Origin: Caenorhabditis remanei
Lineage: Eukaryota > Nematoda > Chromadorea > Rhabditida > Rhabditidae
NCBI RefSeq assembly: GCF_010183535.1
Contig: NC_071331.1
Coordinates: forward strand, 20,212,001-20,276,000
Direction of reading: 5' to 3'
DNA length: 64,000 bases
Shown here: positions 9,150 through 58,590 of the stretch, piece after piece
How the letters are laid out: every line of letters starts with the position of its first letter
Numbering within the stretch: position 1 is the first letter of the stretch
Program-made: the position numbers and the translations under genes
Notes under the pieces: model-generated
Databases searched by the model: none
What the model was told of the DNA's origin: nothing
What the model saw: only the letters and a program-made list of their open reading frames with translations

Positions 9150-9438
9150 ATATAAAACATACTTGTCAAGGGCCGGGCCGGGCCGGGCCGGGCCGGGCCG
9201 GGCTTTTTTTTCAAAACGTCAGGCCCGGCCCGGCCCGGCCCGGGCCAGCCCGGCCCGGCCCGTCAGGCCCGTCTTTTTGGAGGGAAATTTTTTTTTCAAA
9301 TTTTTTTCAAATTTTTTTCGATTTTTTTTCAAATTTGATTAAAAGTGTACTAATGTCAACTCTGATTTTTTCATAGAATAATGTATGAGTGTCAGTGAGT
9401 TGATTTTCATATCGTAAGAATTTTTTTCAAATTTTATG

Positions 9439-9444
9439 ACTACT
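9439..9444. repeat. 6-bp target-site duplication, left (ACTACT)
   Basis: ACTACT directly precedes the AGAGAAGTATGGGGG terminus and is repeated immediately after the opposite terminus at 28497-28502. Six-base duplications are the hallmark of Polinton/Maverick integrases. Confidence 0.9.
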
Positions 9445-9919
9445 AGAGAAGTATGGGGGGGTACTAAGACACACACAGGGGGAGAAACGATGGGGACCAT
9501 GAGTCATTGACAACAAAGTGACCGTATTTCCCGCACTGTTTGTTTGTTTGTTTATTGTTTACGTTGAATTAATTATCAATTTTATTGTTTTAACTAATTA
9601 GTTCTCATCCACTAATTAGTATTTCATTAATTATTTCAAACAATTAAAGCGTAAGTGGTAATTCCAGAAGTTTTACACGTGAACATTATTATCTTGTCAC
9701 GTGAGCATAGATATACAATTCTTTTTTTTTGTTTTGATTACGCTAATGCTTTTTTTTTTCATTCAAACATGAACTTGATCACAATATACAATGTTATTCT
9801 CAGAAAAGGGGTGTATTAGGCACAAAATACTACTTTCATGCATTTTCACACTTTTTCAATGTTTTTACGGTGACTTACCACTAATCACGAGTCTGAAAAG
9901 GGGCGGAGCCTAATGGAAT

Positions 9920-9973
9920 GGTATTTAAGACAGCTTATGCGTACCTAAATTATCATTCTGAGAAAAAATTAAT
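9920..9973 (+). promoter_or_regulatory. Core promoter and leader of the small arm gene (left)
   Basis: GGTATTTAAGACA at 9920-9932 is a TATA-like box almost identical to GGTATATAAGACA before the polymerase gene (12734-12746). A leader intron is likely: donor AAT/GTGAGT at 9974 and acceptor TTCCAG at 10055-10060, just before the ATG. Confidence 0.55.
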
Positions 9974-10063
9974 GTGAGTTTTTATTTTATTTTCATTTAT
10001 TTATGGCTATTGTTTTTAATTTCCAATATTTATTCTACAATTATAACATTAATGTTCCAGAAA

Positions 10064-10629
10064 ATGGCTAACTATAAGAGAATACTGTTGACAATTTCAC
10101 ATGATGAAGTTCAAATAGACGATCCAACACTCCCATCAACTGATGAATCATCTCCTGATGAGATAGATGCCAAGGAAAACCTTCCGAGTCAAAAGGTACA
10201 TAAAAATATTTAAGTTTCAATTTACAAGTATTAATATTTCAGCTCGAGTCAAAAAATATTGTAAAAGTTTTGAGAAAGACATTTGACGAGCCAAGAGGAA
10301 AGTTTCGAGGAGCGATTGCAACTGTCCGTCTTCTTCTCGAACTACCACCGGCTTTGATTTTGCTTGACTCAGGATCCGAAAAATTCGGTGAATGTGTTAT
10401 CAAGCTCATGAAATCTCATAACCCATTCAAATCTGACCACACCATCGTATCCATTGCCATTGATGGAGGTGACAATAATTGTGATGTATCTACTCAATTC
10501 AAACCAATAGGAGACATCAAATCCTTTGATGTTGTTCGTTGTATTGAAAAGTCGGAGCACGACATCGACCTTGGTCTCCGACAAACATCAGTGATTTTCA
10601 CATATTTGAATCCACCAAGATCAAATTGA
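10064..10629 (+). CDS. 172-aa paralogue of the polymerase N-terminal domain (left)
   Basis: Two exons (10064-10195 and 10243-10629) encode 172 aa. The first 44 residues are acidic and serine-rich. The rest aligns with residues about 15-150 of the polymerase encoded downstream: GKFRGAIATVRLLLELPP against GRFNGLVKTVTLSLELPP, then HNPFKS against NDPFKT, and both end in TYLNPP. It is thus a stand-alone version of the polymerase's extra N-terminal domain. Function is unknown; a role as replication cofactor or primer-type protein is only a guess. The start at 10064 follows a probable leader intron; an upstream ATG at 9972 would read into that intron. The mirror copy is at 27312-27877. Confidence 0.8.
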
Positions 10630-12467
10630 AGTCGACTCTGTGTATTTTTTTTTAACTTTACACTATTTACTTGTTGCAGTATCAATAATCTATGTACGCC
10701 TATATTATTTTGTAATTCCGAAATAATTTTTGTATTTTCCAATGAAGCAAAAAAAAATGGAGCATTACATTAAAAGCCAAGTCTGAAAATGATTCCAATA
10801 CGTTGTTACGTTGAAAAACAAAGCGGAGTTTGTATTAGACAAGAAGGAAATTTATTGCGATCGTGACTATCAGTAGGAATTATACTAAGCAGAGAAATTA
10901 TTATTCATTACATGAAGTGAATATATTTTAATAGTAATAATAGCAATATTTTATTACGATCGTGAAAGTATCGTGAAAGTATAGATTGGTGAATAAAATT
11001 CACTACAAATACAATAGGTTCATTACATTATACTAGGAAGAATAAACATGAAACATGAACACATGAGGTCATACCAGAGAAAGTATTGAGAAAGTAAATG
11101 AAAGGATAAACGAATTAATTGCAAAACTAACACATAAAATGTTTATAAAGAAATATTAAAACTTCGAAACAAGGCCTACATTTAAAAAAAAGAAGTTTAA
11201 GAAGAGTACTTGTTATTAATAATATGTTGTTGAATATATAAAATACGTACGGATAAAGAATGTCACGTATACACTTGTCTTTTTGATTTACTTTTTGGAC
11301 AGATTGTCTGACACAATACAATAATAATAATAGGTAAATAAAAAGAGGTTTAGTGATTATGAAGGTGTAGGGTGAGGTATATCAAGGTTTGTTATATGTA
11401 GATTTGACTTAAACGCTGTTGAGGAGATTTCGACAGGAATAGTGTCGGCAGGAAATGAATTCCAGAAATTTAATAACCGGTTGTGAAAGTATTGAGCACC
11501 AGGTTTAGTTGTATAAGGCAAGACAGACTCAATGTAGTAGGGATGTCTTCTTAACGATCCAAAGTTCAGAAGTGTAGTAAATAACTCATCGGGGTTTCTT
11601 CCGACACTATAGTTTTGTACATGAGATTTAGCACAGAAGTAAGTCTGAGGCATACATAAAACAAAAAGCAGTTTATTATTAGTTGTATGTGGTATCAAAT
11701 AGACAAAATAGGTTCAGATGAAGAATGTCACGTATACACTCAGACGGAAAATCTTCAAATTTCAATGAAAAGAATAAACTTTTTATTTCAACTTCTGTCA
11801 AAAAAAAAAAAAAATATATATATAAAGAAAGCTTCGTCGTAAACTAAGGAGTTATTATGAATCCCGATTGATAGTTAGTGAAATTAATAAGTCAGTATAA
11901 ACAAAGTAACGAAAAGATAGCGCAATAAATGTAAAACAAAACGTAAGAAAACATATGTTTAGACTTGACGCAACTATATTCTAGTGTGATATTCTGAATT
12001 CGGTACAGTAGAATGAGGACGTGAACATCAAACCTTGTTAGAAATTGCTAGAATAAAGGAAGACGCGGGTCTACTTTAGAATGATTAAGAATATAAATTA
12101 GACAGAGATTTTAGGAGTCCGGTTCAAGCTCCTTGTGTGGTGGGGGAGGTCCCTTTTGTACTTCTGGTACTGGAATAACATTCTTAGAGATTGTGGGAGA
12201 TTAAGAGGGGTTGGGACGGCGACTAATCGATTGGGTCTTGGGAATGTGCTAGAAGGGGAATATTATGTGTTGGGAAAGTAACTTGTCTGGAAATAGACTT
12301 CCGCGACTGTATTCGGGATGTGAGTCATATGGGAACGCGGTGTGAGTGGCCAATCTGAGGATGACTAATGGAACCGTGGGAAACTATCCGTTAGGGATTA
12401 CTGATCCCTTATACTAGGAGAGATCACATATATTTTGGTCTTTCATTTGGTACTCTTATGAAATGAG
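10630..12467. other. Arm interior without genes (left)
   Basis: AT-rich DNA between the small gene and the polymerase. It contains the LINE fragment (11357-11698, minus) and a repeated string AAGAATGTCACGTATACACT at about 11257 and 11724, which looks like a duplicated piece of the same LINE. Nothing else is recognised. Confidence 0.55.
11357..11698 (-). pseudogene. LINE reverse-transcriptase C-terminal fragment (left)
   Basis: A 113-codon frame on the minus strand ends in a pattern typical of non-LTR retrotransposon polyproteins: YTTKPGAQYFHNRLLNFWNS followed by FPADT and an FKSNL tail. The catalytic reverse-transcriptase core is missing, so this is a 5'-truncated remnant. It is present in identical form in the other arm (26244-26585), so it was there before the arms became, or were last made, identical. 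Confidence 0.6.
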
Positions 12468-12501
12468 TGACGTCATCACTAAAAACAATAGTATGACGTC
12501 A
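12468..12501. promoter_or_regulatory. TGACGTCA motif pair upstream of polymerase (left)
   Basis: TGACGTCATCACTAA starts at 12468 and a second TGACGTCA lies at 12494-12501. TGACGTCA is the palindromic CRE recognised by CREB/ATF-type bZIP factors. The same 15-mer recurs in the element centre (18870) and upstream of the second polymerase gene (63909). Confidence 0.6.
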
Positions 12502-12733
12502 TAGAATGATATCGTGTTCGAACACTTACTGAAACAAAGTAGGAAAAGCTCTTGAATCAGTAATTTTACCTAAAACCACGTATTCCTTATATTCCCATTA
12601 GTATCAAATTTTCTATACAGTGATGATAAACTTGCAAAAGTGACGATAATTGAACATATGGCGATGGAATGATCAAGAATGATAGAATTCAGCATAAAGT
12701 ATGAAATAAGGCAAATTATCAACCACACGGAGG

Positions 12734-12843
12734 GGTATATAAGACACATATTTTGACGGAAAATCATTCATTACACACTTTCACAAGTGTCGACTCTGCT
12801 TTTTTCTATTCTGAAATAATTTATTTTCTTTTAATTCCATATA
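12734..12843 (+). promoter_or_regulatory. Core promoter of polymerase gene (left)
   Basis: GGTATATAAGACA at 12734-12746 is a clear TATA box about 100 bases before the ATG, matching the box of the small arm gene at 9920. Confidence 0.6.
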
Positions 12844-15800
12844 ATGGATTCGAAACTAGATGAAAGTGATGACAAAGTGGTAAGAGAAATTACATTTTTA
12901 TTTTCATTGAATGATATATTAGGTACAAGTGGGAGGAGCCAATGTTCGAGTTCTGACAAAACTTTCTGAAGACGCAAAAGGGAGATTTAATGGACTTGTG
13001 AAGACAGTAACACTTTCTCTCGAACTTCCACCATCCATGACGTCAGATCCACGTGGAGCAGAACTATTTGCAGACACGCTGATTGAACTAGTTCAGAGAA
13101 ATGATCCATTCAAAACTCCACGTACTAGAGCAGGATTCAACTTCGAATCTTCAGAATTTCAAGAATCTGTTGGAATGGCATTCCAAAAAATCAATAATAT
13201 GTCAGTTTCGGAGATTGTGGAAAATATGGCAAGGATGTCACAATCAAGTAGATCTCCTCTTGAACTAGAGGATCCCAAACTGACTTTGAGAATCACATAT
13301 CTCAATCCACCGTCAGGAAGTGGAAAACGGAAGTTCAATACAGGAGATATTTTGGAGCTTACCGCATTTGAAAAGAAGAAAAAAACTGATGATACCATCG
13401 AAGAACCATGTTGTAAGACCAAAACTATGACGGAAACAAAACAGACGAGATCAAACATAATGCCAAATGAAGGTAACAAAATCATATGACTTTATAACAA
13501 TAATTATGTTTATTTCAGTACGCGAAAATTGCCTAGTTCATGCACTTTATCAAACTCTTATGTATCATGAATGGAAACAAAATCGGACTATTGAAAATCA
13601 AAACAAGTACCGCAGTTCCGTCAGAAAAACATATAAACGCCCAGGAATTTGTTCAGAAGTATATGACGCAGTGAATGACTTGAAAGAGGTAAAAATATGG
13701 CTGTGATATATTATCAAACAAATTTTCATTTCAGAGAGCAGGAATGACGAAATCTAGTGATTTTGACAGACTGGATATAGAACAATTCCAGAAAACTGTA
13801 TTTGCAAGTACACATCAAATAGTTGTCTTTGTTGAAAATTCAACTACACCATACTATATGGGACCCTATGTCGGGCCAAGTAAGCAACTGGTTTTGTATC
13901 TGTCTAACGGACACTTCAGCGGTGTGAGAAGTATCTGTGCACTTCTCAAAACGGACTATTATTGCTTTTTGTGTAACACAAAGTACAAAGATTCATCATC
14001 GCACTACAATTGTCCACTAATTCATCGCGTGTGCGGCCAGAAGAACTGTATTATTTCGAAGGAAGATGAAGAAGTTCGTTGTAACAAATGCACAATTAAA
14101 TTCCGTTCCCAGTTATGCTTTGAAAATCATTTGAAAAACGGTAACAAAACAGTATTTTAAAGTAGTTGACATATGCTTTCAGGACCTGAAAACGGAAAAA
14201 GTCGTTGTCAACACACACAATTTTGCAAGAAATGTGGTGAAGCATATTATACAAACAAAAACAAGGATGCTCATAAGTGTGGAGAGAAATGGTGTTACCG
14301 ATGTAGCTGTAAAAGAGTAAAAAATCATCAATGCATTATGCCTACTTCAAAGAAAAATGAGAAGAGATTGACAAGGCGAAGAGTATTCTTTGACATTGAG
14401 GTACAATCAATGCTTAGTTTTATTTTTGTTAATGTATTGTTTTTAGAGTAGAGCAGATGAAAAGACGGGTCAACAGTATCCAGTTCTCTTTGTGGCACTT
14501 CGTTGTTGTCCAGAGTGTTCTTCATCAATACCAAAAGGTCTTAAAGATGCCTGGAAGGAAACTTGTAAAAAATGTGCACCGGATGGAAGACTGAAAATTA
14601 TTGAATGTGTCACCATTAAGAATAGAAATGTTGATGTTGCTTCTGAACTAACCGAATGGCTCTTTGCGGATCATCACAAAGGAAGTGTTTTACTTGCACA
14701 CAATGCATCTGGGTAACTTGTGATTACTTAGAAGACATTATTAATCCCCCTTTTCAGGTATGATGCACAATTCATACTGGAAAAGATGATAGCAAGTAAC
14801 AAAGCGTCACCTAATCTTATACTGGATGGTACAAAACTGATATTCATGGAACATAATGGTGTAAGATTGTTGGATTCTATGAAGTTTCTGACGATGAGTC
14901 TTTCTGCATTAGGGAAAGCATTTGAAATTGACTCAGTCAAAGGGTGAGTGATAATTCTTCTAACTGAAATAAAATATAATTTTCCAGAGATTTTCCTGTT
15001 TTGTTCATTAAACCTGAGCACTATGACTACAACAGCAGTATGCCTGAAGACAAATGGTACAATTTGGAAAACAAACCTTCTTCTGTTAAGAAGCAAATCT
15101 TGAGTTTTCTTGAAAATGAGAGAAATGAAAACAAAAAATTTAATTTTGTTGATGAAATTATGAGGTATTGCTACAATGATGTTTATATTCTTGCCAAAGC
15201 AATGAATAGTTTCGAAACTGAGTTTGAAGCTATGACCAATGTGTGTCTTTTGGAAGTGAGTTATTTCCCATTTAATACAAAACGAAATGTACAAGTTCAG
15301 GAGTCAACAACTGCGGCGTCTGCTGCTGCACTAGTTTTTCGAAGAAATCACATGGATCCTGAAAAACCAATTGTTTTAGATGTTAAACCTTCTGCTTCTG
15401 TCAACAGTTCGGTAATCAGCCAAAAATACTTGGCATGGTTTGGAAGAAAAGAAGGAGTTCAAGTTAACATGTCTACCACATATGGCGAGCAAAAAGTAAT
15501 TTGAAAGCAGTAGTATCAAACTGAAAAGAAAATGTTATAGATTGGTGAATACCATTTAGATGGTATTGTCTCTCCCTGTGAAAAATTTCCGGAAGGATTG
15601 ATTATTGAATTCTTTGTAAGTTTACTCATTTCTTTGATAAAATAATTTTTATTTCTATTTTCAGGGGTGTTACTGGCATGCACATAGTTGTACCTACACA
15701 AAATCTTCTATGATTGGTAACGAAAATGGCGAAGAAATTTGGGATAGAGATGCAAAAAGATTGAAAAGTCTTAAAGAACACCATCCAGTGAAAGTAGTAT

Positions 15801-17601
15801 GGGAGTGTGAAGTTAAGCGAGAACTGTTGTTTGACACTGAAATGGCAGAATTCTTCGACAACTATGAACCAATTGTAAGTTATCTAACTCTCAATTCATA
15901 AAATAATTTTTTATATCAGGGAATATTACACTGTGAGAAGTCTCTTGCTGGGGGAAGAACCGAAGTTTTCAAGTTGTACGCGAATAACACTAGAAAAGTT
16001 CTGCGATATTTAGATGTAGTCAGGCTAATTTAAAACACCAGTAATTAATAAATAACTAGTTTGCAGTTTGTATCCCACTGTCATGAAGCATGAGGCTTTT
16101 CCGATCGGTTCTCCTGAAAATGTGCCGCAGTCTACAATGAAAGTACCTATGAAAAAACCGGAAGATATAAAATTTCGAGGATTTATGAGCTGTCGAGTAC
16201 TTCCACCTCGCCAGTTGAATCTACCTGTCCTACCTATTAAGTATGGAGGCAAATTGCTATTTGGGCTATGTAGGTGTAAGTTTGGTTAATTTAAAATTAT
16301 GATAATGTTTTTTCCCGTGTTCAGGTTGTGCAAAGAAGATGAGTAACACGTCTTGCACTCACTCAAATGAAGAAAGGTCATTCAATGGCACCTTCACAAC
16401 AGCAGAACTGCAAAAAGCTCTAAGCATCGGTTACACTATAATTGAAATTTACCACGTTAGTTCCAAATGAAGCGTTTGTTTTAAAATGGGGAATGTTATA
16501 GGGATTAAAATACAAACATTGGGCTCAAAATGATGCAAACGGAGAAGGTGGACTGTTCACTACCTATATAAATCAAATGATGGAGGAGAAAATAGTATGT
16601 TGTTGCACATAGTGACATAAATAAAGATATTATATTTCAGTATAGTTCCGGATGGCCGTCAAATGTTAAAACGGAAGAAGAAAAACATGCATTTTGTCAA
16701 GAATACTTTGAAAAAGAGCATATTCGACTGACGGATCATTCCCGTTTCAAGAAAAACCCAGGAAAACGTGCCGTAGCTAAACTGATGCTTAACTCATTGG
16801 TAATACTCTGTTTCATTACCTTTTATAATTGTATAATTTTGCAGTGGGGTAAATTTGCTCAGAACGTGGATCGAGAAACAACCAGCATCATAATAGACCC
16901 TTCAAAGTTCTGGAATATGGTGTATGACACAAAAACTGTTATAACGGTCGCAAGGAGTGTAAATGATGTTTTGATTGTTAAACACCGTAAACAGGCTGAA
17001 ACTCTGGAAAGTATGAGAACGAGTGCTATGCAGCTTGCCACTTATACTACATCTTATGCAAGACTTCGACTCTACCGCTTCATGGAAATGGTAGGAGGAG
17101 AAAACATAATCTATACAGGTGCGTTATTGCAAAATACCTCAAAATTATATTTTTATATTTATAGACACCGATTCTATTATCTACTCTGTACCGGAAGGTA
17201 CGGAGGATCCGCTAAAAGATGAAGTCGGTTCTTATTTGGGACAACTTACGGACGAGCTGAATGGTAAAATGACAGAATTTGTAAGCCTTGGACCAAAAAC
17301 TTACTGCTATAAGGATCTACTTGACAACAATGAAGAAAAAATTGTGAGGAAAGCTAAAGGAATCATCATGAACTCGCAAGTGGAGAAAGAAGTTAATTAT
17401 GACAAAATGAAAGTCATGGTGGACGAAGCAATCGAAAATGCAGAAGATCGTACAAGTCTCTACCTTCCGCAACACACCATTTATAAGGACAAGAATCATA
17501 GGATGTACAGTAGGAACATCAAGAAAATTTTTAAGTACACTTTCAACAAACGTAGACTGTTATGTGATGGATCAACACTACCGTTTGGTTATTGTGACTA
17601 A
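12844..17601 (+). CDS. Protein-primed family B DNA polymerase (left arm)
   Basis: Seventeen exons encode 1343 aa: 12844-12879, 12923-13472, 13519-13688, 13735-14140, 14183-14400, 14447-14712, 14758-14943, 14988-15495, 15541-15615, 15665-15874, 15920-16023, 16067-16275, 16325-16455, 16502-16594, 16641-16799, 16845-17118 and 17165-17601. Order: N-terminal domain shared with the small arm gene (about 15-150); NCLVHAL stretch; two cysteine-rich regions (about 329-440); exonuclease motifs DIE (458-460), NASGYD (about 545-550) and YCYND (671-675); polymerase motifs DVVSLYP (D907), NSLWGK (N1105) and DTDS (1199-1202). It would copy the element DNA using a protein primer. In this arm an extra C at 16025 changes the donor after exon 11 from GT to GC; without splicing a stop follows before SLYP. 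The right copy has the normal donor. Confidence 0.9.
16023..16030 (+). other. Altered splice donor in the left polymerase
   Basis: The left arm reads CAG/GCTAAT, the right arm CAG/GTAATT. The extra C lies exactly at the donor of the intron that splits motif A. GC-AG introns exist at low frequency in nematodes, so the gene may still work, but this donor is far from consensus. Confidence 0.8.
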
Positions 17602-18767
17602 CTTGTTTTTACACGTGTCATACTGTTAGCATAAAAATGTTATTAAATAAATATATTTTATAAAAGTTAAGTCGATTACTGAATAAAAAATGTGGTTACG
17701 TGTTTCACACAGAAGGGAAATTTGTATGTGGCAAGCGGAAACCATACAAGTTGAGCATTTTATTGTAATACGTTAATAATTTTATTTATAAAATAACAAA
17801 ATAAAGAAACAAAAAGTTTGAAATGAGTGCAACAACAACAAAAAACTATATTTTCAAATTGTCTGTTACAAAATGAAAGAACTGAGTTGTTATTTTTCCT
17901 GAGAATCTTTGTTTTCTAAACCTTAAATTTTGCCATAGTTTCGAAATTGTTAATACTTTCATTTATGAGTCAGGTTGTGAGGCTCGGCAAACGTCGTTTT
18001 TGCTTCTTTCCCTATGAGTCATCCTAACAGTGTTTGTTTCCAAGGTTTGGGTCCCGTCGTGAATGACTAATTTTGATTTGTCATCAAAAAAAAAAAAGAA
18101 TTGGGATGAGGGAATACGAATCGAAACCAATATAGTGGGGAATTAATAAAATACAAACTAGGAAAATTATTTCAAGATCACAAAATACACGGATTGTTAT
18201 ACCTGATTTTATTTATTTAAAAACTTTATTGTTAAGCCATTATTTTGAAAAAGAAGTTTGAAAATAGTTTGGTGTTACTATGTCATTTCCCCCTTCCTAG
18301 TCAGGAAGAATACAAGGAAAACAAAGAAAGTACCGCCTTTGTCTGGTATTAAAAAAAAAAGAGAACTTGTGAGATTTAATGACTTAGTTTTTAATTAAAA
18401 GTCAGATTATGTTTATATATTCGATATAAACACTTTAGAAATTAAAATTTATTAGTATTTTGATGGGGAAACAAGTCATGAAAGGAAACAAGGTGTGTAG
18501 TTATTAAATAACTATTTAAAATAATTAATTCTATTTTTGCAAATTATAAAAAACAAAAATATCTCTAATAGAAATACCTTTACCACGCTTTATCTATGTT
18601 TAACATAATAAAATTGAGTGAAATGTATTTTTATTCCAGAACTGTATTCCATTTGCTGTTCACTTTTTCATATTTTTCCTTTAAATTGACGAAAACTTGT
18701 AATTATGACTGTCAAAACAGTGTTTTCTGATAAGTTTCGAGGATACGATTCTCGCATCGAATGTGCC
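17602..18767. other. Inner part of the left arm, no gene seen
   Basis: AT-rich DNA with likely polyadenylation signals just after the polymerase stop (AATAAA near 17646). No frame of interest and no motif beyond homopolymer runs; mirrored at 19175-20340. Confidence 0.6.
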
Positions 18768-19174
18768 AGAGAAGTATGGGGGTCCCCCTACGACATGTCC
18801 CCATCCTTTCTCTCTGGACCTTTTTTTTTAAATTGTTTTTTGCTTTACATTGCTTCTTATTGTTGACTATGACGTCATCACTAAGATAGAGACCGGCCAG
18901 AGGCGCGAGAGAGTACACACCGCGTGGAGGGTACGAGAGAGTACACAAAGAGAGGAGGGTGTTAGACAAACAGAGAGAGGCGGTCGGCAGCGAGAGTTCG
19001 GAGAAATGACATGGAGGAGGGGGAGGGGGGATGTGCGCGCGCGCGCCGGAGAGGAGGACCATCATGGATATGGTCGGGAGCCAGGTCGGCCACGGTAGGA
19101 ACCCATTCTACCAGACTACACTTTTGCAAAGATCAAAGATCAACTTGTGTCGTAGGGGTCCCCCATACTTCTCT
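18768..19174. mobile_element. 407-bp central segment bounded by the element's own termini
   Basis: It starts with AGAGAAGTATGGGGG and ends with its complement, the same 15 bases as the outer termini of the 19-kb element. The interior is not palindromic and is G-rich on the plus strand, with two CGAGAGAGTACACA units (18906 and 18934) and the 15-mer TGACGTCATCACTAA at 18870. It looks like an internally deleted miniature of the element. Its flanks (TGTGCC and GGCACA) are inverted, not direct, so there is no ordinary target duplication. No coding sequence. Confidence 0.7.
18870..18884. promoter_or_regulatory. TGACGTCATCACTAA motif in the element centre
   Basis: Exact 15-base match to the motif before the arm polymerase (12468, mirrored near 25473) and before the second polymerase locus (63909). 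Confidence 0.6.
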
Positions 19175-20340
19175 GGCACATTCGATGCGAGAATCGTATC
19201 CTCGAAACTTATCAGAAAACACTGTTTTGACAGTCATAATTACAAGTTTTCGTCAATTTAAAGGAAAAATATGAAAAAGTGAACAGCAAATGGAATACAG
19301 TTCTGGAATAAAAATACATTTCACTCAATTTTATTATGTTAAACATAGATAAAGCGTGGTAAAGGTATTTCTATTAGAGATATTTTTGTTTTTTATAATT
19401 TGCAAAAATAGAATTAATTATTTTAAATAGTTATTTAATAACTACACACCTTGTTTCCTTTCATGACTTGTTTCCCCATCAAAATACTAATAAATTTTAA
19501 TTTCTAAAGTGTTTATATCGAATATATAAACATAATCTGACTTTTAATTAAAAACTAAGTCATTAAATCTCACAAGTTCTCTTTTTTTTTTAATACCAGA
19601 CAAAGGCGGTACTTTCTTTGTTTTCCTTGTATTCTTCCTGACTAGGAAGGGGGAAATGACATAGTAACACCAAACTATTTTCAAACTTCTTTTTCAAAAT
19701 AATGGCTTAACAATAAAGTTTTTAAATAAATAAAATCAGGTATAACAATCCGTGTATTTTGTGATCTTGAAATAATTTTCCTAGTTTGTATTTTATTAAT
19801 TCCCCACTATATTGGTTTCGATTCGTATTCCCTCATCCCAATTCTTTTTTTTTTTTGATGACAAATCAAAATTAGTCATTCACGACGGGACCCAAACCTT
19901 GGAAACAAACACTGTTAGGATGACTCATAGGGAAAGAAGCAAAAACGACGTTTGCCGAGCCTCACAACCTGACTCATAAATGAAAGTATTAACAATTTCG
20001 AAACTATGGCAAAATTTAAGGTTTAGAAAACAAAGATTCTCAGGAAAAATAACAACTCAGTTCTTTCATTTTGTAACAGACAATTTGAAAATATAGTTTT
20101 TTGTTGTTGTTGCACTCATTTCAAACTTTTTGTTTCTTTATTTTGTTATTTTATAAATAAAATTATTAACGTATTACAATAAAATGCTCAACTTGTATGG
20201 TTTCCGCTTGCCACATACAAATTTCCCTTCTGTGTGAAACACGTAACCACATTTTTTATTCAGTAATCGACTTAACTTTTATAAAATATATTTATTTAAT
20301 AACATTTTTATGCTAACAGTATGACACGTGTAAAAACAAG

Positions 20341-23300
20341 TTAGTCACAATAACCAAACGGTAGTGTTGATCCATCACATAACAGTCTACGTTTGTTGAA
20401 AGTGTACTTAAAAATTTTCTTGATGTTCCTACTGTACATCCTATGATTCTTGTCCTTATAAATGGTGTGTTGCGGAAGGTAGAGACTTGTACGATCTTCT
20501 GCATTTTCGATTGCTTCGTCCACCATGACTTTCATTTTGTCATAATTAACTTCTTTCTCCACTTGCGAGTTCATGATGATTCCTTTAGCTTTCCTCACAA
20601 TTTTTTCTTCATTGTTGTCAAGTAGATCCTTATAGCAGTAAGTTTTTGGTCCAAGGCTTACAAATTCTGTCATTTTACCATTCAGCTCGTCCGTAAGTTG
20701 TCCCAAATAAGAACCGACTTCATCTTTTAGCGGATCCTCCGTACCTTCCGGTACAGAGTAGATAATAGAATCGGTGTCTATAAATATAAAAATATAATTT
20801 TGAGGTATTTTGCAATAACGCACCTGTATAGATTATGTTTTCTCCTCCTACCATTTCCATGAAGCGGTAGAGTCGAAGTCTTGCATAAGATGTAGTATAA
20901 GTGGCAAGCTGCATAGCACTCGTTCTCATACTTTCCAGAGTTTCAGCCTGTTTACGGTGTTTAACAATCAAAACATCATTTACACTCCTTGCGACCGTTA
21001 TAACAGTTTTTGTGTCATACACCATATTCCAGAACTTTGAAGGGTCTATTATGATGCTGGTTGTTTCTCGATCCACGTTCTGAGCAAATTTACCCCACTG
21101 CAAAATTATACAATTATAAAAGGTAATGAAACAGAGTATTACCAATGAGTTAAGCATCAGTTTAGCTACGGCACGTTTTCCTGGGTTTTTCTTGAAACGG
21201 GAATGATCCGTCAGTCGAATATGCTCTTTTTCAAAGTATTCTTGACAAAATGCATGTTTTTCTTCTTCCGTTTTAACATTTGACGGCCATCCGGAACTAT
21301 ACTGAAATATAATATCTTTATTTATGTCACTATGTGCAACAACATACTATTTTCTCCTCCATCATTTGATTTATATAGGTAGTGAACAGTCCACCTTCTC
21401 CGTTTGCATCATTTTGAGCCCAATGTTTGTATTTTAATCCCTATAACATTCCCCATTTTAAAACAAACGCTTCATTTGGAACTAACGTGGTAAATTTCAA
21501 TTATAGTGTAACCGATGCTTAGAGCTTTTTGCAGTTCTGCTGTTGTGAAGGTGCCATTGAATGACCTTTCTTCATTTGAGTGAGTGCAAGACGTGTTACT
21601 CATCTTCTTTGCACAACCTGAACACGGGAAAAAACATTATCATAATTTTAAATTAACCAAACTTACACCTACATAGCCCAAATAGCAATTTGCCTCCATA
21701 CTTAATAGGTAGGACAGGTAGATTCAACTGGCGAGGTGGAAGTACTCGACAGCTCATAAATCCTCGAAATTTTATATCTTCCGGTTTTTTCATAGGTACT
21801 TTCATTGTAGACTGCGGCACATTTTCAGGAGAACCGATCGGAAAAGCCTCATGCTTCATGACAGTGGGATACAAACTGCAAACTAGTTATTTATTAATTA
21901 CTGGTGTTTTAAATTACCTGACTACATCTAAATATCGCAGAACTTTTCTAGTGTTATTCGCGTACAACTTGAAAACTTCGGTTCTTCCCCCAGCAAGAGA
22001 CTTCTCACAGTGTAATATTCCCTGATATAAAAAATTATTTTATGAATTGAGAGTTAGATAACTTACAATTGGTTCATAGTTGTCGAAGAATTCTGCCATT
22101 TCAGTGTCAAACAACAGTTCTCGCTTAACTTCACACTCCCATACTACTTTCACTGGATGGTGTTCTTTAAGACTTTTCAATCTTTTTGCATCTCTATCCC
22201 AAATTTCTTCGCCATTTTCGTTACCAATCATAGAAGATTTTGTGTAGGTACAACTATGTGCATGCCAGTAACACCCCTGAAAATAGAAATAAAAATTATT
22301 TTATCAAAGAAATGAGTAAACTTACAAAGAATTCAATAATCAATCCTTCCGGAAATTTTTCACAGGGAGAGACAATACCATCTAAATGGTATTCACCAAT
22401 CTATAACATTTTCTTTTCAGTTTGATACTACTGCTTTCAAATTACTTTTTGCTCGCCATATGTGGTAGACATGTTAACTTGAACTCCTTCTTTTCTTCCA
22501 AACCATGCCAAGTATTTTTGGCTGATTACCGAACTGTTGACAGAAGCAGAAGGTTTAACATCTAAAACAATTGGTTTTTCAGGATCCATGTGATTTCTTC
22601 GAAAAACTAGTGCAGCAGCAGACGCCGCAGTTGTTGACTCCTGAACTTGTACATTTCGTTTTGTATTAAATGGGAAATAACTCACTTCCAAAAGACACAC
22701 ATTGGTCATAGCTTCAAACTCAGTTTCGAAGCTATTCATTGCTTTGGCAAGAATATAAACATCATTGTAGCAATACCTCATAATTTCATCAACAAAATTA
22801 AATTTTTTGTTTTCATTTCTCTCATTTTCAAGAAAACTCAAGATTTGCTTCTTAACAGAAGAAGGTTTGTTTTCCAAATTGTACCATTTGTCTTCAGGCA
22901 TACTGCTGTTGTAGTCATAGTGCTCAGGTTTAATGAACAAAACAGGAAAATCTCTGGAAAATTATATTTTATTTCAGTTAGAAGAATTATCACTCACCCT
23001 TTGACTGAGTCAATTTCAAATGCTTTCCCTAATGCAGAAAGACTCATCGTCAGAAACTTCATAGAATCCAACAATCTTACACCATTATGTTCCATGAATA
23101 TCAGTTTTGTACCATCCAGTATAAGATTAGGTGACGCTTTGTTACTTGCTATCATCTTTTCCAGTATGAATTGTGCATCATACCTGAAAAGGGGGATTAA
23201 TAATGTCTTCTAAGTAATCACAAGTTACCCAGATGCATTGTGTGCAAGTAAAACACTTCCTTTGTGATGATCCGCAAAGAGCCATTCGGTTAGTTCAGAA

Positions 23301-25097
23301 GCAACATCAACATTTCTATTCTTAATGGTGACACATTCAATAATTTTCAGTCTTCCATCCGGTGCACATTTTTTACAAGTTTCCTTCCAGGCATCTTTAA
23401 GACCTTTTGGTATTGATGAAGAACACTCTGGACAACAACGAAGTGCCACAAAGAGAACTGGATACTGTTGACCCGTCTTTTCATCTGCTCTACTCTAAAA
23501 ACAATACATTAACAAAAATAAAACTAAGCATTGATTGTACCTCAATGTCAAAGAATACTCTTCGCCTTGTCAATCTCTTCTCATTTTTCTTTGAAGTAGG
23601 CATAATGCATTGATGATTTTTTACTCTTTTACAGCTACATCGGTAACACCATTTCTCTCCACACTTATGAGCATCCTTGTTTTTGTTTGTATAATATGCT
23701 TCACCACATTTCTTGCAAAATTGTGTGTGTTGACAACGACTTTTTCCGTTTTCAGGTCCTGAAAGCATATGTCAACTACTTTAAAATACTGTTTTGTTAC
23801 CGTTTTTCAAATGATTTTCAAAGCATAACTGGGAACGGAATTTAATTGTGCATTTGTTACAACGAACTTCTTCATCTTCCTTCGAAATAATACAGTTCTT
23901 CTGGCCGCACACGCGATGAATTAGTGGACAATTGTAGTGCGATGATGAATCTTTGTACTTTGTGTTACACAAAAAGCAATAATAGTCCGTTTTGAGAAGT
24001 GCACAGATACTTCTCACACCGCTGAAGTGTCCGTTAGACAGATACAAAACCAGTTGCTTACTTGGCCCGACATAGGGTCCCATATAGTATGGTGTAGTTG
24101 AATTTTCAACAAAGACAACTATTTGATGTGTACTTGCAAATACAGTTTTCTGGAATTGTTCTATATCCAGTCTGTCAAAATCACTAGATTTCGTCATTCC
24201 TGCTCTCTGAAATGAAAATTTGTTTGATAATATATCACAGCCATATTTTTACCTCTTTCAAGTCATTCACTGCGTCATATACTTCTGAACAAATTCCTGG
24301 GCGTTTATATGTTTTTCTGACGGAACTGCGGTACTTGTTTTGATTTTCAATAGTCCGATTTTGTTTCCATTCATGATACATAAGAGTTTGATAAAGTGCA
24401 TGAACTAGGCAATTTTCGCGTACTGAAATAAACATAATTATTGTTATAAAGTCATATGATTTTGTTACCTTCATTTGGCATTATGTTTGATCTCGTCTGT
24501 TTTGTTTCCGTCATAGTTTTGGTCTTACAACATGGTTCTTCGATGGTATCATCAGTTTTTTTCTTCTTTTCAAATGCGGTAAGCTCCAAAATATCTCCTG
24601 TATTGAACTTCCGTTTTCCACTTCCTGACGGTGGATTGAGATATGTGATTCTCAAAGTCAGTTTGGGATCCTCTAGTTCAAGAGGAGATCTACTTGATTG
24701 TGACATCCTTGCCATATTTTCCACAATCTCCGAAACTGACATATTATTGATTTTTTGGAATGCCATTCCAACAGATTCTTGAAATTCTGAAGATTCGAAG
24801 TTGAATCCTGCTCTAGTACGTGGAGTTTTGAATGGATCATTTCTCTGAACTAGTTCAATCAGCGTGTCTGCAAATAGTTCTGCTCCACGTGGATCTGACG
24901 TCATGGATGGTGGAAGTTCGAGAGAAAGTGTTACTGTCTTCACAAGTCCATTAAATCTCCCTTTTGCGTCTTCAGAAAGTTTTGTCAGAACTCGAACATT
25001 GGCTCCTCCCACTTGTACCTAATATATCATTCAATGAAAATAAAAATGTAATTTCTCTTACCACTTTGTCATCACTTTCATCTAGTTTCGAATCCAT
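20341..25097 (-). CDS. Protein-primed family B DNA polymerase (right arm)
   Basis: Mirror of the left-arm gene: 17 exons, 1343 aa, same motifs and the same predicted protein. The codon difference near 22735 is silent. The donor after exon 11 (near 21918) is a normal CAG/GTAATT, so this copy is the more likely functional one. Both polymerase genes point toward the centre, 2.7 kb apart, so their 3' ends face each other. Confidence 0.9.
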
Positions 25098-25194
25098 TAT
25101 ATGGAATTAAAAGAAAATAAATTATTTCAGAATAGAAAAAAGCAGAGTCGACACTTGTGAAAGTGTGTAATGAATGATTTTCCGTCAAAATATG

Positions 25195-25207
25195 TGTCTT
25201 ATATACC
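25195..25207 (-). promoter_or_regulatory. Core promoter of polymerase gene (right)
   Basis: Mirror of GGTATATAAGACA at 12734-12746. Confidence 0.55.
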
Positions 25208-25439
25208 CCTCCGTGTGGTTGATAATTTGCCTTATTTCATACTTTATGCTGAATTCTATCATTCTTGATCATTCCATCGCCATATGTTCAATTATCGTCA
25301 CTTTTGCAAGTTTATCATCACTGTATAGAAAATTTGATACTAATGGGAATATAAGGAATACGTGGTTTTAGGTAAAATTACTGATTCAAGAGCTTTTCCT
25401 ACTTTGTTTCAGTAAGTGTTCGAACACGATATCATTCTA

Positions 25440-25473
25440 TGACGTCATACTATTGTTTTTAGTGATGACGTCA
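25440..25473. promoter_or_regulatory. TGACGTCA motif pair (right)
   Basis: Mirror of 12468-12501, including the 15-mer on the minus strand. Confidence 0.6.
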
Positions 25474-27311
25474 CTCATTTCATAAGAGTACCAAATGAAA
25501 GACCAAAATATATGTGATCTCTCCTAGTATAAGGGATCAGTAATCCCTAACGGATAGTTTCCCACGGTTCCATTAGTCATCCTCAGATTGGCCACTCACA
25601 CCGCGTTCCCATATGACTCACATCCCGAATACAGTCGCGGAAGTCTATTTCCAGACAAGTTACTTTCCCAACACATAATATTCCCCTTCTAGCACATTCC
25701 CAAGACCCAATCGATTAGTCGCCGTCCCAACCCCTCTTAATCTCCCACAATCTCTAAGAATGTTATTCCAGTACCAGAAGTACAAAAGGGACCTCCCCCA
25801 CCACACAAGGAGCTTGAACCGGACTCCTAAAATCTCTGTCTAATTTATATTCTTAATCATTCTAAAGTAGACCCGCGTCTTCCTTTATTCTAGCAATTTC
25901 TAACAAGGTTTGATGTTCACGTCCTCATTCTACTGTACCGAATTCAGAATATCACACTAGAATATAGTTGCGTCAAGTCTAAACATATGTTTTCTTACGT
26001 TTTGTTTTACATTTATTGCGCTATCTTTTCGTTACTTTGTTTATACTGACTTATTAATTTCACTAACTATCAATCGGGATTCATAATAACTCCTTAGTTT
26101 ACGACGAAGCTTTCTTTATATATATATATATTTTTTTTTTTTGACAGAAGTTGAAATAAAAAGTTTATTCTTTTCATTGAAATTTGAAGATTTTCCGTCT
26201 GAGTGTATACGTGACATTCTTCATCTGAACCTATTTTGTCTATTTGATACCACATACAACTAATAATAAACTGCTTTTTGTTTTATGTATGCCTCAGACT
26301 TACTTCTGTGCTAAATCTCATGTACAAAACTATAGTGTCGGAAGAAACCCCGATGAGTTATTTACTACACTTCTGAACTTTGGATCGTTAAGAAGACATC
26401 CCTACTACATTGAGTCTGTCTTGCCTTATACAACTAAACCTGGTGCTCAATACTTTCACAACCGGTTATTAAATTTCTGGAATTCATTTCCTGCCGACAC
26501 TATTCCTGTCGAAATCTCCTCAACAGCGTTTAAGTCAAATCTACATATAACAAACCTTGATATACCTCACCCTACACCTTCATAATCACTAAACCTCTTT
26601 TTATTTACCTATTATTATTATTGTATTGTGTCAGACAATCTGTCCAAAAAGTAAATCAAAAAGACAAGTGTATACGTGACATTCTTTATCCGTACGTATT
26701 TTATATATTCAACAACATATTATTAATAACAAGTACTCTTCTTAAACTTCTTTTTTTTAAATGTAGGCCTTGTTTCGAAGTTTTAATATTTCTTTATAAA
26801 CATTTTATGTGTTAGTTTTGCAATTAATTCGTTTATCCTTTCATTTACTTTCTCAATACTTTCTCTGGTATGACCTCATGTGTTCATGTTTCATGTTTAT
26901 TCTTCCTAGTATAATGTAATGAACCTATTGTATTTGTAGTGAATTTTATTCACCAATCTATACTTTCACGATACTTTCACGATCGTAATAAAATATTGCT
27001 ATTATTACTATTAAAATATATTCACTTCATGTAATGAATAATAATTTCTCTGCTTAGTATAATTCCTACTGATAGTCACGATCGCAATAAATTTCCTTCT
27101 TGTCTAATACAAACTCCGCTTTGTTTTTCAACGTAACAACGTATTGGAATCATTTTCAGACTTGGCTTTTAATGTAATGCTCCATTTTTTTTGCTTCATT
27201 GGAAAATACAAAAATTATTTCGGAATTACAAAATAATATAGGCGTACATAGATTATTGATACTGCAACAAGTAAATAGTGTAAAGTTAAAAAAAAATACA
27301 CAGAGTCGACT
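25474..27311. other. Arm interior without genes (right)
   Basis: Mirror of 10630-12467. Apart from the LINE fragment listed separately, nothing is recognised. Confidence 0.55.
26244..26585 (+). pseudogene. LINE reverse-transcriptase C-terminal fragment (right)
   Basis: Mirror of 11357-11698 with the same predicted 113 residues; a truncated non-LTR retrotransposon tail. Confidence 0.6.
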
Positions 27312-27877
27312 TCAATTTGATCTTGGTGGATTCAAATATGTGAAAATCACTGATGTTTGTCGGAGACCAAGGTCGATGTCGTGCTCCGACTTTTCAATAC
27401 AACGAACAACATCAAAGGATTTGATGTCTCCTATTGGTTTGAATTGAGTAGATACATCACAATTATTGTCACCTCCATCAATGGCAATGGATACGATGGT
27501 GTGGTCAGATTTGAATGGGTTATGAGATTTCATGAGCTTGATAACACATTCACCGAATTTTTCGGATCCTGAGTCAAGCAAAATCAAAGCCGGTGGTAGT
27601 TCGAGAAGAAGACGGACAGTTGCAATCGCTCCTCGAAACTTTCCTCTTGGCTCGTCAAATGTCTTTCTCAAAACTTTTACAATATTTTTTGACTCGAGCT
27701 GAAATATTAATACTTGTAAATTGAAACTTAAATATTTTTATGTACCTTTTGACTCGGAAGGTTTTCCTTGGCATCTATCTCATCAGGAGATGATTCATCA
27801 GTTGATGGGAGTGTTGGATCGTCTATTTGAACTTCATCATGTGAAATTGTCAACAGTATTCTCTTATAGTTAGCCAT
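27312..27877 (-). CDS. 172-aa paralogue of the polymerase N-terminal domain (right)
   Basis: Mirror of the left small gene, two exons (27877-27746 and 27698-27312), same predicted protein. Its TATA-like box is the complement of GGTATTTAAGACA at 28009-28021. Confidence 0.8.
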
Positions 27878-28496
27878 TTTCTGGAACATTAATGTTATAA
27901 TTGTAGAATAAATATTGGAAATTAAAAACAATAGCCATAAATAAATGAAAATAAAATAAAAACTCACATTAATTTTTTCTCAGAATGATAATTTAGGTAC
28001 GCATAAGCTGTCTTAAATACCATTCCATTAGGCTCCGCCCCTTTTCAGACTCGTGATTAGTGGTAAGTCACCGTAAAAACATTGAAAAAGTGTGAAAATG
28101 CATGAAAGTAGTATTTTGTGCCTAATACACCCCTTTTCTGAGAATAACATTGTATATTGTGATCAAGTTCATGTTTGAATGAAAAAAAAAAGCATTAGCG
28201 TAATCAAAACAAAAAAAAAGAATTGTATATCTATGCTCACGTGACAAGATAATAATGTTCACGTGTAAAACTTCTGGAATTACCACTTACGCTTTAATTG
28301 TTTGAAATAATTAATGAAATACTAATTAGTGGATGAGAACTAATTAGTTAAAACAATAAAATTGATAATTAATTCAACGTAAACAATAAACAAACAAACA
28401 AACAGTGCGGGAAATACGGTCACTTTGTTGTCAATGACTCATGGTCCCCATCGTTTCTCCCCCTGTGTGTGTCTTAGTACCCCCCCATACTTCTCT

Positions 28497-28502
28497 ACTA
28501 CT
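28497..28502. repeat. 6-bp target-site duplication, right (ACTACT)
   Basis: Direct repeat of 9439-9444, immediately outside the CTTCTCT terminus. Confidence 0.9.
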
Positions 28503-29783
28503 TTTGCTCTTTTTTTGTTTCCTTCCACGTTCACCGAAATGCCCAAAGTCGCTCGTTCTCAGCGAGGTTTGGACCGAATCGAATAACTTTTTCGGTATGA
28601 AAATGCACTCATTGACACTCATACATTATTCTATGAAAAAATCAGAGTTGACCTTAGTACACCTTTAATTTGATTATCGCCGGAGGCGTCTCGCTGAAAA
28701 ATTCAGTCAATGTTTCGAAAAATTTAATAAAAAATCATGAAAAAAGTATGAAAAAACGAGTAAATTTGGAAATTTTTCCGAATGAAAAATTGAAAATTGA
28801 AAAAAATTTGAAAAATTTTCTCAAAAATCCCATACCCCTGAAAAGACGGGCCTGACGGGCCGGGCCCGGGCCGGGCCGGCGGGCCGGCCCGTCATTTGAC
28901 AAGTATGATATAAAACGCATGTGGGGTTGGTTCGCATCTCTGTCACAATGTCGGCATTTTATTTTCATTTCCAAAAATACAAATTATCATCAAAAACGTT
29001 TTTATGTGGACTTGAGTGGCGTAGTCGCGAGAAAAAGCGCCAAAGTCGTGTCAGCCAAAGCTGGTGTTTTAATAAGATGGGTCGTTATTTGTGAAATCGT
29101 TGAACTGTCATGGCAAAATAATTCATAAAATATAGAAATTGCAATATTTTATTCTCGTTGGAAAAGAACTTGGAAAATGCTTGTCACTACAATTTTTTAT
29201 TACTGTTTCTGGGAAACGACAAGTGTTTTTAACAGAAATAGCAGTTGATGTCAATAGCATTCCCAGAAATTGAAAACGTTAGTAAATCACTAGGGAATGG
29301 TGATATCGGAAAATTTTTAATTGGAAATTATACCTCAAGAAAAACTATTTTTGTAAGTTATAAACAGAAAATAGAACGGTTCATTCACGGAGTATAATTT
29401 TTTCCAAAAAAACTTTATTTCTGAATTCTCGGAAACAGTAAAACTTTTCACTACAAGAATTGCAGATAGGAAGTTTTTTTCAAACTTAACTGAAAAGCAA
29501 AGATAATGCTCATACTTTTTTTCTGAATCTTCAAGTTTTGAGGTACTCATAACAGTGACAAAGGCAGAACAAATGTGTTTAAGAGAAGGATTTTTTAAAA
29601 GATTGCTATCTGAAACAGTAAATCATTTATTGCATTGTTTTGTTGTTGTCTTTTTTTTATCCTTTAAACCGATTGTCTCCGTTCCATCTTCAAGTAAGAT
29701 TTTTTGTCAAAGAAAACATTGATATATTTATTGTATACGGTAAAAATGTGTAAGTAAACAGATGAAGATTAAAAAAGAAGCTA

Positions 29784-56462: not shown

Positions 56463-57119
56463 AATAACACAACGAGAGCGTATGAAATAGATCACCAATC
56501 ACGATGACGTTAAAAATACGGAATGGCACAAAAATAGTCCTTGAGCAGCTGAATGTGAGAGAGTTAGAGACGCAGAGAAAGTGCATAGGTCAAAAAACCC
56601 TTCTCCTTTCTGGAAATTGTCGCTACCCTATTTAGTTCTATTCTGTACACACATATTTCTTCAAGAATATTACTCATAGTATTGGCTGCGCACCTGAAAT
56701 ACGTTATCAAGCTATGATTGAAAACAACACTTTAGTGCTTTTGTTGATAGAATAGAAGAATGTAGTATGCTGATGCTCTGTAAGTATATGTCCATGAAAA
56801 ATGTAATATACCCTAATGTAAACAAAAGATCCATATAGATAAAAGCGATAGCAAATATAAGTGGTTATTGATAAAAATATGAAGCTTTTACGTCTGAACT
56901 TAGGCATTTGTTGATGAACAAACACTAAACATCTTCCTCGGAAAGCATCCCTAGATGCAAAAATGCGCGCCCGTATTATCAGCTTTCTTTGCATTAAGCG
57001 GTAATATGATGACAAGTACTTCGTAATATGAATACGTTAGTGTGTATCACGGTAAATATTGCTAAAAAGAAACGTTGCCGCCATATTGAAGCTCGAGTAT
57101 CATCTCAAAAGATTGAAAA
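56463..57119. other. Upstream DNA of the 202-aa gene
   Basis: Contains TGACGT near 56503 and GAGAGAGTTAGAGACGCAGAGA near 56558, resembling purine-rich stretches in the centre of the palindromic element. No gene supported. Confidence 0.4.
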
Positions 57120-57660
57120 ACATAATCCTATAGAGAAAAAAGTGTAGGCATAGGCAAAAATATGTAGGCTTTCGCGAAAAAGTGTAAACATACACGAAAA
57201 ATATGCAGGTATGCATGAAAAATATGTAGGTATACCCGAAGAATATGTGGACATACACGAAAAATCTGTGGAAATGCACGAAAATATGTAGGAATACACG
57301 GAAAATCTGTGGAAATGCACGAAAATATGTAGGAATACACGGAAAATATGTAGGAATACACGGAAAATATGCAGGTATACATTATAAATATGTAGGTATA
57401 CATGTAAAATGTAGGCGTATATGAAAAAACTAGAAGACATACCCGAAAAATTTGTGTATGCGCACGAAAAATATATGTGCATATACGAAAAAATCTGTGG
57501 AAATACTTGAAAAAGTGTAGGCATACACAAAATATGTAGGAATACACGAAAATCTGTAGGCATACATGTAAAATATGTGTATGCGCACGAAAAAAGTGTA
57601 GACGTGTAGGCAAAGATGCGTAGACATACATGCAAAGTAGTCTGAAACGTGTGTCCACGT
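57120..57660. repeat. 21-bp tandem repeat array
   Basis: Degenerate units of 21 bases such as AATATGTAGGAATACACGGA (20 of 21 shown) repeat many times. Because the period is seven codons, long open frames appear on the minus strand (a PTYFSCI-like heptad). The residue content (F, Y, H, C, I only) and the decay suggest the frames are by-products, not a protein. Confidence 0.75.
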
Positions 57661-57689
57661 ATGAAAATAAAGTAAAAAAGGTATGTATA

Positions 57690-58345: not shown

Positions 58346-58461
58346 GTCGTGAAATCAGACATGCTCACATGAAAAACTGACTAAAAAGCTTTGAAAATCT
58401 GATAAAAGTGTTGTTTTTTCTCAATTTTTGTAAGATTTCACACTGATTTCTGTCAAAAAAT

Positions 58462-58590
58462 TTTTGTGCATAGATTGTGTCTCTGCAAAATTTTTGTTTT
58501 GAGATTGTGCATAGATTGTTTTTCAATATATTTTTTGTGCAAAGATTGTGCAAAGATTGTGCGTAGATTGTGCAGATTGTGTATGAAATG
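58462..58590. repeat. Short GTGCATAGATT/GTGCAAAGATT repeats
   Basis: About seven copies of GATTGTGCAAA-type units lie between the long arrays and the polymerase stop codon. Confidence 0.6.

What the first reader, a model, noticed from the sequence alone, without database searches (positions are those of the whole stretch)
9445..28496. A Polinton-like element that is almost entirely a palindrome, with two facing DNA polymerase genes
Termini (AG...CT, 15 identical bases), a perfect 6-bp target duplication and a protein-primed family B polymerase identify a Polinton/Maverick relative. Ordinary Polintons have terminal repeats of hundreds of bases and 10 or so genes. Here the repeats are 9.3 kb each, and only the polymerase and a small paralogue of its N-terminus remain, in two copies. 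It may be a distinct minimal lineage that moves using another element's integrase, or an inverted dimer formed during protein-primed replication and then integrated. Identity of the arms implies recent formation or strong gene conversion.
Basis: partly seen in the sequence, partly recalled or inferred. Interest (0 to 1): 0.9.

Follow-up and report, generated by a model that had tools for sequence, protein, structure and literature searches.

The report
Palindromic polymerase-only Polinton transposons
A roundworm genome carries a lineage of virus-like jumping genes whose DNA is one giant mirror image holding two copies of a single copying machine, which suggests that they rely on complete relatives in the same genome and that a huge palindrome can be an inherited genome form.

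Summary
Window 9445-28496 is a 19,052-bp insertion with a perfect 6-bp target duplication and 9.3-kb inverted arms that differ at five places. The same genome (130.5 Mb; a Caenorhabditis, C. remanei by recall) holds 19 mirrored pairs of related polymerase loci. All 11 palindromes whose outer ends I examined have perfect, distinct 6-bp duplications. Arms within an element are 99.88-99.97% identical (6 compared end to end); between families they fall to about 70-76%. Of 1,107 variable sites, 1,099 are shared by both arms of an element. The seven elements tested encode a terminal-protein/vOTU/family-B polymerase under purifying selection (dN/dS 0.09-0.17) and no recognisable integrase, capsid, ATPase or protease. 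Co-resident Polintons share the 15-bp terminus and have those genes. Each centre examined (0.4-1 kb) is bounded by terminal sequences of another element. Best reading: a polymerase-only Polinton lineage, mobilised in trans, whose palindrome arose and is renewed by replicative fold-back. Architecture and persistence are shown; mobilisation in trans and fold-back are inferred. A reciprocal palindrome of the integrase-capsid half also exists on unplaced contigs.

The parts
9439..9444 (.). target-site duplication, left copy (ACTACT)
28497..28502 (.). target-site duplication, right copy (ACTACT)
9445..18767 (+). left arm, 9323 bp
19175..28496 (-). right arm, 9322 bp, mirror of the left arm
18768..19174 (.). 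centre, 407 bp, bounded by two inward-reading 15-bp termini; its right 253 bp is 94-96% identical to the ends of two other elements (L027, L050)
   Evidence: single-strand fold z -3.5
9445..9459 (+). outer left terminus
28482..28496 (-). outer right terminus
18768..18782 (+). inner left terminus
19160..19174 (-). inner right terminus
10064..10629 (+). small gene (two exons by eye), terminal-protein-like, left arm
   Evidence: 30% identical to the PolB N-terminal domain; model resembles the little finger of Y-family polymerases; dN/dS below 0.25 in four pairs
27312..27877 (-). small gene, right-arm copy (start by mirror of the left arm)
12844..17601 (+). PolB gene, left arm: about 17 exons by eye (terminal-protein domain, vOTU, exonuclease, polymerase)
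   Evidence: exons searched apart
20341..25097 (-). PolB gene, right-arm copy (start by mirror of the left arm)
12923..13483 (+). PolB exon with the N-terminal domain (terminal-protein domain D1)
13518..14142 (+). PolB exons with vOTU-like Cys (ENCLVHALYQ) and His (LYLSNGHFSGVR) motifs; assignment by comparison with PMC11071308
11200..11760 (.). arm stretch with similar sequence at 12 unrelated places; present in both arms of E0, E3 and E9

Best explanation
This is a member of a lineage of Polinton-derived transposons whose inherited genome form is a palindrome: outer terminus, terminal-protein-like gene, TP-vOTU-PolB gene, short centre, then the mirror image. SHOWN: many palindromic loci of one related PolB group in one genome; precise insertion with new 6-bp duplications; arms that evolve in concert; selection on the polymerase; no integrase, capsid, ATPase or protease match in the elements tested; Polintons that have those genes and the same 15-bp terminus in the same genome; centres bounded by terminal sequences of other elements. 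INFERRED: the element replicates itself by protein priming from its outer ends, and integrates (perhaps is also packaged) with proteins of co-resident Polintons. The palindrome arose when a nascent strand that had copied one half reached an inverted repeat (here the termini of a captured mini-element), folded back and copied itself to its own starting end. The same U-turn, or mismatch repair in the 9-kb snap-back hairpin of a displaced strand, renews arm identity at each replication cycle.
For: Plan recurs: DNA of the 3-prime PolB exons has 40 scored matches of which 38 form 19 mirrored +/- pairs (in one search 18 pairs are 2.2-4.2 kb apart, one 18.6 kb). TSDs perfect and distinct in 11 of 11 palindromes and 4 of 4 ordinary elements examined. 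Arms 99.88-99.97% in six elements, against 97.7% between E0 and E3 and 70-76% over partial alignments with other families. Site patterns: A 155 element-wide versus 2 arm-specific, B 564 versus 6, C 380 versus 0; no column sets left arms against right arms. Arm lengths equal within 0-4 bp in ten elements, and a 295-bp length difference between S1 and S4 is in both arms. A stretch similar to 12 other genomic places is in both arms of E0, E3, E9. dN/dS 0.09-0.17. Gene content dichotomy: 7 palindromes PolB only, 4 of 4 ordinary elements with ATPase, integrase, capsid and protease matches; 0 of 95 capsid, 0 of 94 integrase and 0 of 44 ATPase matches in the genome fall inside 11 palindromes. PolB split palindromic versus ordinary: support 91 with 35 loci. 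Outer ends are alike among families A, B, C (83-89% over 33-38 bp) and have no listed match to ordinary ends, while inner ends match three different other elements (94-96% over 253 bp for A). Independent fold-back in the same genome: the C92 centre is a mirror image in 270 of 275 positions, the 5 mismatches at the very middle, in an intergenic stretch that in E1 holds a short imperfect inverted repeat.
Against: No integrase binding, extrachromosomal form or fold-back intermediate has been seen. Gene conversion on the chromosome would give the same site patterns. Inner termini are imperfect in several elements (E3 right 2 mismatches, E7 right 1, C2_3.2 left 1), so a U-turn exactly there is not required each time. 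Monophyly is not recovered by 2 of 6 single exons (x0, x4) and only weakly by a third (x2, 57). One mirrored locus (C122, 273-281 kb) has arms only 87% alike in the exon compared. A few genome hits of the group have no mirrored partner (C4:3572644 and C108:13921; others). L027 and L050, the match of centre A, were not shown to be Polintons.
Confidence: 0.62

Rival explanations
1. Once-formed inverted dimer kept uniform by chromosomal gene conversion between arms, as proposed for sex-chromosome palindromes (recalled); replication plays no part in the homogenisation.
For: Arm-identical site patterns and a repeat-like stretch in both arms fit; a locus with only partial matches (C4:3569412/3575385) still has 201 of 201 identical arm bases.
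Against: All 11 target duplications examined are perfect, so these insertions look young and need no later conversion; no old insertion with identical arms was found, but I fetched no clearly old one.
Confidence: 0.25
2. Repeated accidents: PolB-bearing Polintons became palindromes several times independently, each seeded by insertion of a mini-element; the palindrome is a dead-end defective form.
For: Centres of families A, B and C are unrelated beyond the terminus; two single-exon trees (x0, x4) do not group the palindromes.
Against: Outer ends and the small gene are shared between A and B; four of six exons and the 35-locus tree separate palindromic from ordinary; polymerases are under purifying selection within families.
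Confidence: 0.15
3. Bipartite genome: the polymerase palindromes and the integrase-capsid palindromes are two segments of one virus-like element that complement each other.
For: Divergent ATPase pairs with the same 431-bp gap at five places and 426 bp at a sixth, on C174, C92 (two), C86, C75 and C26; mirrored capsid gene in C92 to the base and mirrored integrase and capsid on C114.
Against: Those arrays were seen only on small unplaced contigs, their ends and duplications were not read, one C92 capsid copy is split by 8.8 kb, and the polymerase groups differ in family and number; complete Polintons are present and could serve as helpers.
Confidence: 0.12
4. Assembly artefact, for example reads that run back on themselves because an adapter was missed.
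For: Arms are nearly perfect and raw reads were not available.
Against: The palindromes end at a defined terminus with perfect 6-bp duplications and different flanks, have asymmetric 0.4-1 kb centres, and the four ordinary elements held show no such arms.
Confidence: 0.03

Closest known systems
Polinton/Maverick transposons (adintovirus and mavirus relatives)
   Same: protein-primed PolB with N-terminal terminal-protein and vOTU domains, 6-bp duplications, AG...CT ends, 16-20 kb
   Different: no integrase, capsid, ATPase or protease match; arms of 9 kb instead of short terminal repeats; two copies of one half
Defective or symmetric genomes of protein-primed replicons: adenovirus symmetric recombinants (recalled), hairpin deletion derivative of the kalilo plasmid (title seen in the reference list of PMC11071308)
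   Same: inverted duplication of one genome end, explained by fold-back of a displaced strand
   Different: those are occasional derivatives; here the form is inherited, selected and transposes
Bidnaviridae (abstract of PMC4061559 seen; bipartite genome recalled)
   Same: polymerase of Polinton origin; genome parts on separate molecules would be a parallel for the bipartite reading
   Different: single-stranded DNA viruses, no giant palindrome
Phage satellites that carry helper packaging or end sites (recalled)
   Same: small element with its own replication that carries sequences resembling a helper's ends
   Different: eukaryotic, palindromic, and the helper-like ends lie in the centre
Foldback transposons and sex-chromosome palindromes (recalled)
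   Same: very long inverted repeats with near-identical arms
   Different: no self-encoded replicase; here precise mobile units

Membership tests
Polinton/Maverick | protein-primed family B polymerase encoded | tested here: met
   PF03175 on separate exons; N-terminal domain model hits mavirus PolB, E 9.9e-4; vOTU-like Cys and His motifs
Polinton/Maverick | 6-bp target-site duplication | tested here: met
   11 of 11 palindromes examined
Polinton/Maverick | terminal inverted repeats beginning AG | tested here: met
   AGAGA[AG]GTATGGG at the outer ends
Polinton/Maverick | retroviral-like integrase | tested here: not met
   no match in 13 pieces of 7 palindromes, present in 4 of 4 ordinary elements; 0 of 94 genome matches inside 11 palindromes
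Polinton/Maverick | capsid proteins, packaging ATPase, protease | tested here: not met
   none in 13 pieces of 7 palindromes; 0 of 95 capsid and 0 of 44 ATPase matches inside 11 palindromes. So filed as a Polinton derivative, not as a Polinton
satellite of a Polinton | mobilised by a helper's proteins | not testable with these tools
   only consistent: shared 15-bp terminus and inner ends matching other elements
fold-back (snap-back) replicon | single-strand hairpin or TP-linked intermediate | not testable with these tools
   no DNA forms can be seen from an assembly

The most novel reading that the evidence does not exclude
In this nematode the Polinton genome has come apart into two palindromic half-genomes of similar size, one carrying only the replicase (TP-vOTU-PolB plus a free terminal protein), the other only integrase, ATPase and capsid genes, each stably inherited as a mirror image and each needing the other (or a complete Polinton) to move: a bipartite virus-like transposon with fold-back replication.
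Probability: 0.12. Interest if true: 0.97.

Novelty: new variant of a known kind. Interest (0 to 1): 0.87.

Why it matters
Giant palindromes are usually seen as unstable accidents. Here a lineage keeps one as its genome plan across families whose synonymous sites are saturated, with arms renewed to near identity. That makes a long-standing suggestion testable: that protein-primed replicons pass through a fold-back stage, and that Polintons mobilise each other in trans in animals. It would also be a satellite-and-helper system inside an animal genome, and the first hint, here only on unplaced contigs, of a Polinton split into complementary halves.

Tried and rejected

Literature: searches (listings seen; nothing found) showed no title or abstract on palindromic Polintons. 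The library is open-access only. Jeong 2023 on nematode polintons is not held and Widen 2023 was seen only as a passage in a meeting report, so prior notice is possible. PMC11071308: section 6 and passages seen; PMC8097293, PMC4046053, PMC3671162: passages seen.
Full report
1. Observation. The window holds two inverted arms, 9445-18767 (9323 bp) and 19175-28496 (9322 bp), around a 407-bp centre. Five differences lie within the arms. The element is flanked by ACTACT on both sides. The terminus occurs at both outer ends and at both ends of the centre, so the centre itself looks like a small element; its flanks, however, are mirror images of each other.

2. The genome. The window is part of a 130,466,896-bp assembly in 186 contigs. 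Protein hits of a neighbouring gene and of the element are to Caenorhabditis; that it is C. remanei rests on my recall of an assembly size and was not tested. The 15-base terminus has 25 forward and 23 reverse matches, with none for the reversed-pattern control; with one mismatch and either base at position 6 there are 69 and 69, with 8 and 19 in the control, and only part is listed.

3. More palindromes. E0 (window), E3, E5, E7 and E8 were compared end to end: arms are 99.91, 99.88, 99.92, 99.97 and 99.97% identical over 8.6-9.4 kb, S1 99.95% over 9.2 kb. The other S loci have identical or near-identical sequence on the two sides of their centres: 1500 of 1500 bases in S1 and S3, 99.7% and 99.9% with gaps in S2 and S4, 200 of 200 in S5, S6 and S7; 547 of 547 at C2:3.23 Mb. 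A 1,021-base query from the last PolB exons gave 40 scored matches (of 52 candidates), 38 of them in 19 mirrored pairs. In 18 pairs the two genes' ends lie 2.2-4.2 kb apart and in one (C40) 18.6 kb. A 174-aa exon query shows further pairs, for example at C5:21.55 Mb, C62 and C6:5.2 Mb. Not everything fits: C122:273-281 kb has arms only 87% alike in the exon compared, and several hits have no mirrored partner in the lists.

4. They transpose as palindromes. Target duplications of 6 bp are perfect in 11 of 11 palindromes examined (E0, E3, E5, E7, E8; S1, S2, S4, C2:3.2 Mb, E9 at C2:19.2 Mb, C3:15.5 Mb), all different.

5. Arms evolve in concert. Family A (E0, E3): 155 substitution columns separate the elements and 2 are arm-specific. 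Family B (E5, E7, E8): 564 and 6. Family C (S1 both arms, S4 left arm only): 380 and 0. No substitution column sets left arms against right arms. In gap columns a handful are arm-specific. Arm lengths agree within 0-4 bp in the ten elements where all four termini are placed, although lengths differ between elements by hundreds of bases: S1 8853/8853, S4 9148/9148. A stretch of the arm (11200-11760) has similar sequence at 12 other places (72-85% identity over part of its length) and sits in both arms of E0, E3 and, for part of it, E9; no match was listed in C3:15.5 Mb or in other families. That fits an insertion copied from arm to arm, but its borders were not mapped.

6. Old plan, living gene. 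Between families the PolB exons have pS 0.76-0.83, saturated; within families dN/dS is 0.17 (E0/E3), 0.12 (E5/E7), 0.15 (E7/E8) and 0.09 (S1/S4). A tree of 35 loci from one 174-aa exon separates 21 loci of the palindromic group from 14 others with support 91; a few of the 21 were not shown to be palindromes (C6:19.8 Mb, C148, C122:273 kb). With 11 taxa, the same split has support 98, 97, 84 and 57 in four exons and is absent in two. The trees are unrooted.

7. What they encode. Held pieces of seven palindromes (13 pieces; S4 one arm) match only PolB; four ordinary elements (E1, E2, E4, E6) match PolB, ATPase, integrase, minor capsid, major capsid and protease (Pfam rve, DJR-like and Peptidase_C5 for E1, the DJR-like score being below the Pfam cut-off). 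Genome-wide, 0 of 95 listed capsid matches, 0 of 94 integrase matches and 0 of 44 ATPase matches fall inside 11 palindromes with known ends; of eight ordinary elements, capsid and integrase matches are in 8 and ATPase in 7. Only the best candidates are scored in such searches. The PolB N-terminal exon corresponds to the terminal-protein domain and the next exons to the vOTU domain described for nematode polintons in PMC11071308 (passages seen): Cys and His motifs are kept in the seven palindromes looked at. The small gene, found in families A and B, is a paralogue of the terminal-protein domain; its model resembles Y-family little fingers, the fold from which that paper derives terminal proteins, and dN/dS is below 0.25 in four comparisons with few changes. 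I infer a stand-alone terminal protein.

8. Ends inside and outside. Outer ends of A, B and C are alike (83-89% over 33-38 bp) and have no listed match to ordinary ends, although all begin with nearly the same 15 bases. Inner ends match other elements: A right end to L027 and L050 (93% over 150 bases; 94-96% over 253 bases), B one end to E1 (88-93% over about 103), C one end to E6/E2/L030 (up to 100% over 150; S1 only 91-93% over 54-58 internal bases). So each family carries terminal sequence of a different co-resident element in its middle. Whether this is needed for mobilisation or only supplied an inverted repeat for fold-back is open. L027 and L050 were not shown to be Polintons.

9. How it most likely works. 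Shown: points 1-8 as stated. Inferred: the element primes its own DNA synthesis with its terminal protein from the outer ends. A displaced 19-kb strand would fold into a 9-kb hairpin with a 0.4-1 kb loop, giving a regenerated end and a place for mismatch repair between arms; a nascent strand that folds back at an inverted repeat makes a palindrome from one half. A related event is visible in the other half of a Polinton: on C92 the mirror image runs through 270 of 275 positions, the five mismatches being at the very centre, in the stretch upstream of the ATPase gene. In E1 that stretch holds a short imperfect inverted repeat (seen by eye). Integration needs an integrase from elsewhere; Polintons with the same terminus are the obvious source.

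10. The other half. Divergent ATPase gene pairs occur on C174, C92 (two), C86, C75 (gap 431 bp) and C26 (426 bp) with equal scores in both members except on C26. On C92 a capsid gene mirrors to the base; one copy is interrupted by 8.8 kb. On C114, another family, integrase and capsid genes mirror to the base around one centre. Their ends and duplications were not read and all lie on unplaced contigs, so this is a lead.

11. Novelty. In the searches named under Tried and rejected I saw no description of palindromic Polintons. Closest are Polintons themselves and occasional inverted-duplication derivatives of protein-primed replicons. I call it a new variant of a known kind.

Noticed in passing
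contigs C92, C174, C75, C86, C26, C114 of the window's genome: Mirrored pairs of integrase, ATPase and capsid genes: a reciprocal palindrome of the other half of a Polinton.
   Followed up: partly
window 58630-62792 (-): Exons of a second, distant family B polymerase of the Polinton kind, next to the window's end.
   Followed up: partly
window 9249-9425 and 28582-28869: The palindrome landed inside an older inverted repeat with GGGCC arrays: the flanks are 79-89% mirror images.
   Followed up: partly
window 37408-38445 (+): 345-aa open frame of a Tc1/mariner-like transposase (name by eye; weak DDE_3 match).
   Followed up: no
window 44190-47823 (+): Exons of a class-III aminotransferase gene, relatives named 5-phosphohydroxy-L-lysine phospho-lyase.
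   Followed up: no
window 57105-58581: Tandem repeats with 21-, 31- and 41-base units beside the second polymerase.
   Followed up: no
window 16025: The two arms differ by one base beside an intron boundary in front of the polymerase motif A exon, so the two gene copies may not be equally functional.
   Followed up: no
L085 and L090 (C122:273-281 kb): A mirrored polymerase locus whose two sides are only 87% alike and resemble different members of family C.
   Followed up: partly
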